From the NCBI GenBank assembly GCA_016278265.1, contig JADQCE010000001.1:248001-312000 (forward strand): a DNA stretch of 64,000 nt, read 5' to 3'. Shown piece by piece: positions 4,498 through 8,158 of this stretch. The notes under the pieces are model-generated. The model worked only from the letters and a program-made list of their open reading frames with translations, did no database searches and was not told the DNA's origin. A program made the translations under genes and the position numbers. Source of the DNA: Halothiobacillus sp. GTDB taxonomy: Bacteria > Pseudomonadota > Gammaproteobacteria > Halothiobacillales > Halothiobacillaceae. How positions within the stretch are numbered: position 1 is the stretch's first letter; each line of letters begins with the position of its first letter.

Positions 4498-4558
4498 TAC
4501 ACCAGCCCATCTGGAGGGCGGTTCGGCGCGCGTGTTACCATCTCGCCGCCTTCCGATT

Positions 4559-4635
4559 GCCCATGTAGCTCAGCTGGATAGAGCAACCGCCTCCTAAGCG
4601 GTAGGTCGCAGGTTCAAATCCTGCCTTGGGCGCCA
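4559..4635 (+). tRNA. tRNA-Arg (anticodon CCT)
   Basis: A 77-base cloverleaf with D stem GCTC/GAGC, anticodon stem ACCGC/GCGGT with loop CTCCTAA (anticodon CCT, reads AGG), T stem GCAGG/CCTGC with loop TTCAAAT, and encoded CCA. The acceptor stem GCCCATG/CTTGGGC has a T-T mismatch at pair 6-67, which is unusual. An AT-rich islet begins directly after it. Confidence 0.93.
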
Positions 4636-4725
4636 TTTTTACACCCTGTTGCTCGGCCAGATTGTAGATTCGATGCTTTGCCAGCGGTAGGGTGTGCTCG
4701 AGAGCCGTCCCTCTAAAGGAACTAG

Positions 4726-5703
4726 ATGAACGATCCAATCTCACAAGGTGGTATGGCAAGGCGCTCTTGCAGAAAGATCGTGGACCTTGTTCAAGGATTT
4801 CTTGTTAAGCACCTGCTGCGCCCGATTGTCTTTCTCATGCCTCCCGCGATTCTGACGTGGGTCGCGACGAGAGAGGGGTTGCAATCTGACCTTTCTACAT
4901 GGATTGGTCCCGGCGCAACAGAATTCGTTTCTGGTTCGGCTTTGTTAACAATTTTGGGTGCTTATCTATATATCGTTCTGCTTAAGGCTTTGTATGCCGG
5001 CATCGAGAGATGCGCGAGGCCTGAGAAAGAAATGAATGCCAATGATTTGGTTGCGGTTATTAAGTCTCTGGATTACGTGGTTGATGATAAAGCCCAGAGA
5101 ATAAGTCGGGCGGCGAAAGAAGCTGTCAAGAGGGGGAGCGTGTGCGGGGGTGATGTCTTTATGGATATTACGAAACCTGGTCAGCAACTACTGTTGTTGG
5201 TTAAGGGGATTCGCTCGGTATTTGAATACTTGGATGATACAAACGCTAATTTCCGCGTTGGGTTGCTCAAGGTTAGTAACCAGAAACCTGTCGAGTGGTA
5301 TGCGTTCGATCCTGCCTCGGAACCACCTCGCACCCCACCGGGGGTTTTATCGGCTCCATCGAGCACAGTTTCTCATAGCATAAAGTCGAAATCCTTGGTC
5401 GTTGTCGACGATATCCAGAAGGAGTTGGCGGCGAAGAAATCAAAGGGCGAACGGAGATTTTTGCGGGGGAATACTCAAGATGGCGATGATGGTTCGCAGT
5501 TGTGCTATCCAATAATTCATCCTGCCTCGGGTGAGGTTGAGTACGTGGTCACAATTGCTGGCGACAAAGCGAAATGCCTAAAGGGGGCTTATGGGGAAAT
5601 CTACTCTTGGGTAATTCGGCACTTCGCTGTTCGGATGATTCTAGAGCATAGTTTGCTCATGTTAAGGGAGAAGGCTAATGGGACAAACGAAAAAGCAGCG
5701 TGA
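4726..5703 (+). CDS. Unrecognised membrane protein with a GAF-like domain
   Basis: A 325-residue protein I cannot assign to a named family. Residues about 31-48 and 70-91 are hydrophobic, giving two likely membrane helices close together, then a cytoplasmic part from about 104. Residues about 165-315 read like a GAF sensor fold: a strand (RVGLLKV), the segment SKSLVVVDDI, the core GSQLCYPIIHPASGE, and a closing helix. No catalytic motif is visible. ATG 4726 has AAAGGA six bases upstream. Its codon use and low GC differ from its neighbours, suggesting transfer. It overlaps a small basic ORF by 26 bases, so the two are probably translated together. A sensor role is inference. Confidence 0.7.
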   Translation: MNDPISQGGMARRSCRKIVDLVQGFLVKHLLRPIVFLMPPAILTWVATREGLQSDLSTWIGPGATEFVSGSALLTILGAYLYIVLLKALYAGIERCARPEKEMNANDLVAVIKSLDYVVDDKAQRISRAAKEAVKRGSVCGGDVFMDITKPGQQLLLLVKGIRSVFEYLDDTNANFRVGLLKVSNQKPVEWYAFDPASEPPRTPPGVLSAPSSTVSHSIKSKSLVVVDDIQKELAAKKSKGERRFLRGNTQDGDDGSQLCYPIIHPASGEVEYVVTIAGDKAKCLKGAYGEIYSWVIRHFAVRMILEHSLLMLREKANGTNEKAA

Positions 5704-5845
5704 TACGCGTGTCCGTGTCAAGTTCTCTCTTGACTCTTCTTCGCGTTCGACGGCAGAAAAGCTAAAAAAGAAAGAGTTTGAAAGGTCTGTGAATCGTGAC
5801 TCAAAAATGGTCTTAAATCTGCGGAATAACCGGGAGCCATCTTGA
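5678..5845 (+). CDS. Small basic protein overlapping the GAF-like gene
   Basis: A 55-residue ORF starting at ATG 5678 inside the end of the preceding gene in another frame, with AAGGGAG seven bases upstream. It is rich in Lys and Arg, has no cysteine and no membrane segment, and contains a Ser-rich stretch (LDSSSRSTAEKLKKK). No family is recognised. The strong ribosome site and the overlap argue that it is real and coupled to the upstream gene. It could be a small regulatory or nucleic-acid-binding partner, but nothing in the sequence proves this. Confidence 0.5.
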   Translation: MGQTKKQRDTRVRVKFSLDSSSRSTAEKLKKKEFERSVNRDSKMVLNLRNNREPS

Positions 5846-5960
5846 CGTCTGTCGGAAGTTTTATGGGATGACAGACATCCGGTGTCGTATCCGCCGTAGC
5901 GCCGCTTCTCAGGGGGGCGGGGCCGCTTTCGCTTGGTGATTTTTCTCTCACTCCTTGTTG

Positions 5961-5985
5961 CCCCGCCTTGTGCGGGGTTTCTTTT
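5961..5985 (+). terminator. Intrinsic terminator closing the islet
   Basis: CCCCGC (5961-5966), five-base loop, GCGGGG (5972-5977), then TTTCTTTT. It is oriented for plus-strand transcripts and lies 115 bases after the small ORF. Confidence 0.75.
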
Positions 5986-6009
5986 GTCCGAAGGATGGGG
6001 TGAGGGGTG

Positions 6010-6469: not shown

Positions 6470-8158
<1,689 letters not shown>

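What the first reader, a model, noticed from the sequence alone, without database searches (positions are those of the whole stretch)
4726..5845. Unrecognised two-TM GAF-like protein overlapping a small basic ORF
A membrane-tethered GAF-like protein (two close helices, then a sensor-like domain) is followed in another frame by a 55-residue Lys/Arg-rich ORF with its own strong ribosome site. The pair has foreign composition and no known family. Small two-gene cassettes in such sites can be defence, toxin-antitoxin or signalling systems.
Basis: partly seen in the sequence, partly recalled or inferred. Interest (0 to 1): 0.55.

Follow-up and report, generated by a model that had tools for sequence, protein, structure and literature searches.

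The report
Membrane GAF toxin-like two-gene cassette
A rare, mobile pair of genes, a membrane-anchored sensor-domain protein and a tiny partner overlapping its end, is built like a known bacterial self-poison and antidote but unrelated to it in sequence, and probably helps bacteria or mobile elements fight phages; this has not been tested.

Summary
ORF A (4726-5703, 325 aa) and ORF B (5678-5845, 55 aa, net +9) overlap by 26 nt and form AT-richer cargo directly behind a tRNA-Arg(CCT) gene, at a site where congeners carry other cargo. A is a two-helix membrane hairpin plus a GAF domain (VIA Z 13.2 to a solved GAF domain). No library names either protein. I found nine loci in all (A relatives 23-52% identical to the window's): a conjugative plasmid, a plasmid-like contig, a Mu-like prophage, a second tRNA site and others. 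All nine have a 50-64 codon ORF overlapping A's stop by 4-26 nt; seven of nine small proteins are demonstrably homologous. Neighbours include BstA-like, HyoA (NACHT) and TcmP/PDC-M41A proteins. The best analogue is Bacillus SpoIISAB: a membrane GAF-fold toxin with a 56-aa antitoxin encoded behind it. Sequence membership in SpoIIS was tested and not met. Best reading: an unnamed, SpoIISAB-like, mobile toxin-antitoxin module of Gram-negative bacteria, plausibly an abortive-infection effector. Toxicity, neutralisation and defence are inferred; the neighbour evidence is small and was partly selected. Closest to a new variant of a known kind.

The parts
4726..5703 (+). Gene A: 325-aa protein, N-terminal two-helix membrane hairpin plus C-terminal GAF domain; proposed toxin/effector
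   Evidence: relatives
4813..4869 (+). codons of hydrophobic segment 1 of A (residues 30-48)
   Evidence: hydropathy, (8 of 9 loci have this segment above the 1.2 cut; L009 does not reach it)
4927..4983 (+). codons of hydrophobic segment 2 of A (residues 68-86)
   Evidence: hydropathy, (9 of 9 loci)
5029..5679 (+). codons of the GAF domain of A (about residues 102-318)
   Evidence: model; Foldseek; VIA-align; Pfam GAF_2 in 5 of 9 members at E<=1, best 9.2e-4
5664..5674 (+). AAGGGAGAAGG, likely ribosome-binding site of B, inside the end of A
   Evidence: sequence
5678..5845 (+). Gene B: 55-aa basic protein, proposed antitoxin/partner of A
   Evidence: long helix 20-51 predicted
4636..5917 (.). 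foreign insert between tRNA-Arg and the conserved downstream flank; variable cargo site in the genus
4559..4635 (+). tRNA-Arg(CCT), the 5' border of the insert
   Evidence: homology to congeners ends at 4635
5960..5978 (+). terminator-like hairpin in the conserved flank behind the insert, in DNA shared with congeners; probably serves the cassette

Best explanation
A-B is a two-gene toxin-antitoxin module that works like Bacillus SpoIISAB. A is a membrane toxin: its N-terminal hairpin sits in the inner membrane and its GAF domain lies in the cytoplasm and mediates oligomerisation or ligand sensing. B, translated by its own ribosome site from the overlapping end of A's message, is a small basic partner that binds A's GAF or membrane-proximal helices and keeps it inactive. 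When B is lost, or the GAF domain meets an infection-linked ligand, A assembles and damages the membrane, stopping the infected cell. The cassette travels as cargo of tRNA sites, plasmids and a prophage. Shown by computation: gene structure, domain architecture, conserved pairing, mobility. Inferred: toxicity, neutralisation, topology, trigger and role in defence.
For: Nine loci, each with A followed by a 50-64 codon ORF overlapping by 4-26 nt. Membrane segments plus GAF domain. SpoIISA is described as N-terminal TM helices plus a cytoplasmic GAF-fold domain that dimerises, with the 56-aa SpoIISB encoded next to it and binding that domain (PMC6562991 passages; PMC4926146 first part). Another membrane GAF toxin with an antitoxin, toxFtsLD9:PanA, is validated (PMC10440598 section 11 part 1). 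Purifying selection on A between the two Shewanella copies: dN 0.062, dS 0.432. Mobile carriers: conjugative plasmid, plasmid-like contig with Rep3, ParA and an integrase, Mu-like prophage beside its S24/HTH repressor, tRNA-Arg site, tRNA-Met site. Defence-type neighbours: BstA-like protein directly upstream in L013 and PDC-M41A (TcmP) next door in L023, HyoA NACHT antiphage protein 2.7 kb from B in L016, HSDR_N protein directly upstream in L017. At the window's own site G269 carries PDC-M66A/B and G370 an HNH/SRA-like protein.
Against: No sequence relation to SpoIISA or SpoIISB. B of L010 and L011 cannot be shown to be homologous to the rest. B's dN/dS in the Shewanella pair is weakly informative (0.070/0.144). 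Four of the nine loci (window, L014, L009, L015) show no defence gene as immediate neighbour; PADLOC hit 4 of 17 neighbours tested, two of them generic cross-hits in my judgement, against 1 of 10 ordinary window genes, so the defence link is suggestive only. The membrane part of the model is poor (pLDDT about 60). SpoIISA has three TM helices; here usually two.
Confidence: 0.45

Rival explanations
1. Ligand-gated membrane effector of phage defence: A is held inactive or active by a small molecule bound to GAF (compare 2TM-beta of Panoptes or Cap1 of type III CRISPR); B is a sensor or adaptor that detects the phage, not a classical antitoxin.
For: Same type of layout (TM pair plus ligand-binding domain) as Cap1 and 2TM-beta (abstracts); GAF is listed among nucleotide-binding domains of conflict systems (PMC7159879 passage); defence-type neighbours.
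Against: No cyclase or nucleotide-making enzyme was identified beside A among the neighbours searched; ligand pocket not tested.
Confidence: 0.25
2. Roles reversed: B is a small basic toxin (nucleic-acid or membrane binding) and A is the membrane-anchored neutraliser or immunity protein.
For: B is basic (net +1 to +12 across nine loci) and diverges faster than A (window vs L012: dN 0.837 against 0.427).
Against: B has no toxin family match; fast divergence is equally typical of antitoxins (general knowledge).
Confidence: 0.1
3. Regulatory or signalling pair of mobile elements (for example exclusion of related elements or control of lysogeny), with A as membrane sensor and B as its regulator; no killing.
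For: Carriers include plasmids and a Mu-like prophage next to its repressor; GAF is a sensor fold.
Against: Also found in chromosomes directly behind tRNA genes, without other element genes beside it (window, L015).
Confidence: 0.15
4. B is a chance or non-coding overlap ORF and A acts alone.
For: Two of nine B are not recognisable by profile; B is short and diverges fast.
Against: 9 of 9 loci have it, with ribosome-site-like sequence in most; 7 of 9 beat all 1139 decoys and all 500 shuffles each.
Confidence: 0.05

Closest known systems
SpoIISA-SpoIISB(-SpoIISC) of Bacillus
   Same: Membrane helices at the N-terminus, GAF-fold soluble domain at the C-terminus, small antitoxin-sized ORF (56 aa in B. 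subtilis) directly downstream; occasionally on plasmids
   Different: No detectable sequence similarity of either protein; three TM helices in SpoIISA, two here (three in L011); 248 against 325 aa; SpoIIS is mostly core genome of Bacillus, this is rare, often mobile cargo in Gram-negatives; ORFs overlap here
toxFtsLD9:PanA (Gelidibacter mesophilus, NetFlax network)
   Same: Toxin with predicted TM region and a GAF domain (281 aa), paired with an antitoxin
   Different: Antitoxin is a Panacea domain protein, not a 55-aa peptide; reported toxin blocks division and has an FtsL-like coil; no direct sequence comparison made here
2TM-beta of Panoptes / Cap1 of type III CRISPR
   Same: TM helices joined to a further domain that responds to a nucleotide; membrane damage as defence
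   Different: Not described as GAF, and there is a nucleotide-making partner; here none was seen among the neighbours searched
GAF domain proteins in general (1f5m, free methionine sulfoxide reductases, PDE GAF)
   Same: Fold of the soluble domain (VIA Z 10-13)
   Different: No shared catalytic or chromophore function established; sequence identity 6-17% in the rows shown

Membership tests
GAF domain superfamily | GAF fold | tested here: met
   Model residues 102-318; VIA Z 13.2 (3.7 A over 160 residues) to 1f5m_B and nearly all of the 50 rows GAF or GAF-like; Foldseek top rows GAF proteins though no E below 0.001; Pfam GAF_2 in 5 of 9 members, best E 9.2e-4, but not in the window protein itself
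SpoIISAB toxin-antitoxin | sequence match to SpoIISA_toxin (PF14171) | tested here: not met
   Own genome 0 of 1 at E<=10 while the B. subtilis control rings; PF14171 not among the Pfam matches of the 9 A proteins at E<=1; hhalign to pSC2 SpoIISA probability 0.2%
SpoIISAB toxin-antitoxin | sequence match to SpoIISB_antitox (PF14185) | tested here: not met
   0 of 9 genomes/records have a match over the cut-off, and none of the listed weak matches lies at a B position; the B. subtilis control rings; B profile scores the pSC2 SpoIISB-type ORF no better than 163 of 1000 of its shuffles
SpoIISAB toxin-antitoxin | N-terminal TM helices plus cytoplasmic GAF-fold domain | tested here: met
   Hydropathy, model; the cytoplasmic side is inferred, not tested
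SpoIISAB toxin-antitoxin | small antitoxin gene directly downstream of the toxin gene | tested here: met
   9 of 9 loci have a small ORF there; antitoxin activity not tested
SpoIISAB toxin-antitoxin | toxicity of A, neutralisation by B, A2B2 complex | not testable with these tools
   needs expression and binding assays
Type II toxin-antitoxin systems | two adjacent co-directional genes with conserved linkage | tested here: met
Type II toxin-antitoxin systems | DNA-binding (for example ribbon-helix-helix) domain in the small protein | tested here: inconclusive
   No Pfam hit in any of 9 B; model is one long helix behind a possible strand
Known anti-phage defence systems (PADLOC-DB) | match to a listed defence protein | tested here: not met
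   A: only REase_II at E 0.02 over residues 101-132, judged chance; B: none
Panoptes / CBASS / Pycsar | nucleotide-making enzyme beside the TM effector | tested here: inconclusive
   none seen among the neighbours searched; not all neighbours were searched

The most novel reading that the evidence does not exclude
A previously unnamed, mobile family of Gram-negative anti-phage systems in which a membrane GAF protein is a pore-forming suicide effector held in check by a dedicated peptide of about 55 aa; the GAF domain reads an infection-dependent metabolite or phage product. It would show that the SpoIISAB architecture arose or survived outside Bacillus as defence cargo and would suggest a role for SpoIISAB, whose physiological role is described as unknown.
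Probability: 0.27. Interest if true: 0.68.

Novelty: new variant of a known kind. Interest (0 to 1): 0.5.

Why it matters
SpoIISAB was found in 2001 and its physiological role is described as unknown (PMC6562991). A sequence-unrelated pair with the same architecture on plasmids, in a prophage and in tRNA cargo sites, some copies beside antiphage genes, suggests what such membrane GAF toxins could be for, and provides compact natural pairs that can be tested in a laboratory E. coli strain. Neither window protein has a name in Pfam, NCBIfam, PADLOC or PHROGs.

Tried and rejected
Restriction-enzyme reading: HindIII-like (Pfam E 0.21) and REase_II (PADLOC E 0.02) matches cover about 30 residues of A only; rejected. 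Ribbon-helix-helix reading of B (from the look of its VxVKxxLD motif, recalled): no Pfam match and the model is a single long helix; not supported, not excluded. Descent of B from SpoIISB, suggested by a similar look of the C-terminal ends: no support at this sensitivity. T4-type holin resemblance in the viral fold search (ranks 7, 22 and 23, E 0.02-0.5): not followed. Separate promoter for B: the scan found no sigma-70-like site on the + strand in 4500-6000. Attachment-site repeats: no exact direct repeat of 8 or more bases between the tRNA-Arg end and the far end of the insert, one 8-base match in L015; the integration mechanism is unknown. Known E. coli or phage homes: no match. More viral relatives: searches gave only the same IMG/VR contig, none. 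A relatives are rare: 4 of 369 class genomes, 1 of 398 phylum genomes, 1 of 27 family/order genomes, the window's own genome counted in each. The absence of a SpoIISA structure from the 50 rows shown in the fold searches says nothing.

Literature: searches listed no paper that I recognised as being on this pair; only 40 of 503 papers were listed, all with zero SpoIISA mentions. Most subscription papers are not held; the SpoIISA structure paper itself is not held.

Full report
What is there. Gene A (4726-5703) encodes 325 aa and gene B (5678-5845) encodes 55 aa in another frame. B starts 26 nt before the end of A and is preceded by AAGGGAGAAGG; it has 16 K/R and 7 D/E. A starts 91 bases behind tRNA-Arg(CCT) 4559-4635. 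G+C falls to 46-52% in 300-base windows across the pair against 59-70% outside.

It is an insert. A DNA search of 11 genus genomes with the downstream flank found it in 8 (one is the window's own genome; one, G374, has only a 28-base match). Of the six congener loci aligned, homology begins again at window 5918 in three, 5923 in two and 6006 in one; upstream homology ends at 4635, the last base of the tRNA, in the three loci that reach it (L026, L029, L030). I fetched six congener regions; four have tRNA-Arg(CCT) in the stretch (G269, G370, G372, G369) and two (G158, G363) do not. The cargo differs: G269 has HipA_2 plus DUF3037, which PADLOC names PDC-M66A/B; G370 has an HNH protein with an SRA match below Pfam's cut-off; G372 has a DsrE-type protein; in G369 only 164 bases separate the tRNA from the flank. 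No direct repeat of 8 or more bases joins the two ends and the insert holds no integrase, so the way it came in is unknown. In Salinisphaera (L015) the A gene also lies just behind a tRNA gene, tRNA-Met 7625-7701 with A at 7809.

Gene A. No family in Pfam, PADLOC, NCBIfam or PHROGs; the weak restriction-enzyme matches cover about 30 residues. Of nine family members, five match Pfam GAF_2 at E<=1, best 9.2e-4; the window protein does not. A six-sequence AlphaFold2 model has mean pLDDT 69 and pTM 0.54, most of the C-terminal domain between about 70 and 88 and the membrane part near 60. VIA-align gives Z 13.2, 3.7 A over 160 residues, to the GAF protein 1f5m, and the rows shown are almost all GAF or GAF-like; Foldseek agrees but with no E below 0.001. 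Hydropathy gives two segments, residues 30-48 and 68-86; 8 of 9 members show both at the cut used (L009 shows only the second), and L011 has an extra one at its N-terminus. The positive charges before the first segment suggest that both ends lie in the cytoplasm; that is inference.

Relatives. Class search: 4 of 369 genomes, the window's own included. Phylum: 1 of 398, own only. Family and order are the same 27 genomes: 1 of 27, own only. Genus of G249: 1 of 6. Plasmid collection: one record, Shewanella baltica OS223 pS22303, 51%, a conjugative plasmid. IMG/VR: one contig. Phage records: none with the three queries tried. E. coli genomes: none. That makes nine distinct loci with the window's; the eight others are 23-52% identical to the window protein.

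Gene B. At 9 of 9 loci a 50-64 codon ORF overlaps A's stop by 4 to 26 nt, with net charge +1 to +12. In the window only 2 of 36 ORFs of 200 aa or more have such an ORF behind them, A being one. With each B left out in turn (for the two Shewanella copies both were left out), the profile of the others puts 7 of 9 above all 1139 decoy ORFs and above 500 of 500 shuffles; L010 and L011 fail. A profile of all nine finds in 369 class genomes only the four known B at E below 1e-11, all of them members of the profile, and eleven weak matches at E 0.01-0.1 that I did not follow. Between the two Shewanella copies A is under clear purifying selection (dN 0.062, dS 0.432); B is too short to say (0.070, 0.144). 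AlphaFold2 gives B one long helix, residues 20-51, mean pLDDT 80, and Foldseek found no chain like it.

Carriers and neighbours. L012: conjugative plasmid, with an upstream protein weakly like Mrr (E 0.0094, below cut-off). L014: contig with Rep3 initiator, ParA and a phage-type integrase. L017: Mu-like prophage with Mu-type transposase, an S24/HTH repressor, an HSDR_N protein and then A and B, close to the contig end. L013: a KilA-N protein matching BstA (E 1.6e-20) directly upstream, and a group II intron reverse transcriptase fragment downstream. L016 (G361): HyoA, a NACHT antiphage protein, 1602 bits against a cut-off of 1200, about 2.7 kb from B. L011/L023: TcmP, named PDC-M41A by PADLOC, just downstream. 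PADLOC was run on 17 neighbours of the nine loci chosen by me and hit 4 (BstA, TcmP, a group II RT and an HTH protein; I judge the last two generic), and on 10 ordinary window genes and hit 1. The sample is small, and the window, L014, L009 and L015 have no such neighbour. So the defence link is suggestive.

How it most likely works. The architecture is that of SpoIISAB. In B. [quoted passage not shown] the 56-aa SpoIISB is disordered alone and wraps around the SpoIISA dimer; SpoIISA disrupts the cytoplasmic membrane, with a similar phenotype in E. coli (PMC6562991, passages; PMC4926146, first part, which gives SpoIISB as 65 residues). I therefore propose that A is the membrane toxin and B its small partner. 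A second precedent is toxFtsLD9, a 281-aa TM plus GAF toxin with a PanA antitoxin, which blocks division without depolarisation (PMC10440598 section 11 part 1). In both precedents toxicity was measured; here nothing was.

Is it a SpoIIS member? Tested and not met by sequence. PF14171 finds nothing in the window's genome while it rings in B. subtilis. PF14185 has no match over cut-off in 9 genomes or records and none at a B position. hhalign of the A profile to a SpoIISA from Paenibacillus polymyxa pSC2 gives probability 0.2%. The B profile scores that plasmid's SpoIISB-type ORF no better than 163 of 1000 of its shuffles. So: works like SpoIISAB (inferred), not shown to be SpoIISAB. Common descent of two GAF proteins with TM helices cannot be excluded at this distance.

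Verdict. The finding is real. It is a rare, unnamed, mobile two-gene family with a GAF-domain membrane protein and a conserved overlapping small protein. The most likely role is a SpoIISAB-like toxin-antitoxin module, plausibly for abortive infection; the experiments to prove it are simple.

Noticed in passing
L035 6309-8209 (G269): At the same tRNA-Arg(CCT) site a congener carries HipA_2 kinase plus DUF3037 (PDC-M66A/B), so the site looks like a defence cargo hot spot of the genus
   Followed up: partly
L036 2653-3357 (G370): Same site in another congener: HNH endonuclease with an SRA-domain match below the cut-off
   Followed up: partly
L016 5054-9346: HyoA, NACHT antiphage protein (NF058534, 1602 bits), near the A-B pair
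   Followed up: partly
L016 2492-3140: HTH protein overlapping a 94-aa protein on the - strand; looks like a TumA/TumE-type toxin-antitoxin pair (recalled; the 94-aa protein matched no NCBIfam or PADLOC model)
   Followed up: partly
L017 2967-8951: Mu-like prophage whose region beside the repressor holds an HSDR_N-domain protein and then A-B: a likely prophage defence segment
   Followed up: partly
L023 12501-13072: MazE/MazF-like pair (by eye, not searched) about 2.3 kb from the A-B pair of G249
   Followed up: no
L012 3876-5504: Protein on the Shewanella plasmid just upstream of A with a sub-threshold Mrr_cat match (E 0.0094)
   Followed up: no
L011 1417-1473: The G249 relative of A has an additional N-terminal hydrophobic segment, giving three as in SpoIISA
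   Followed up: no
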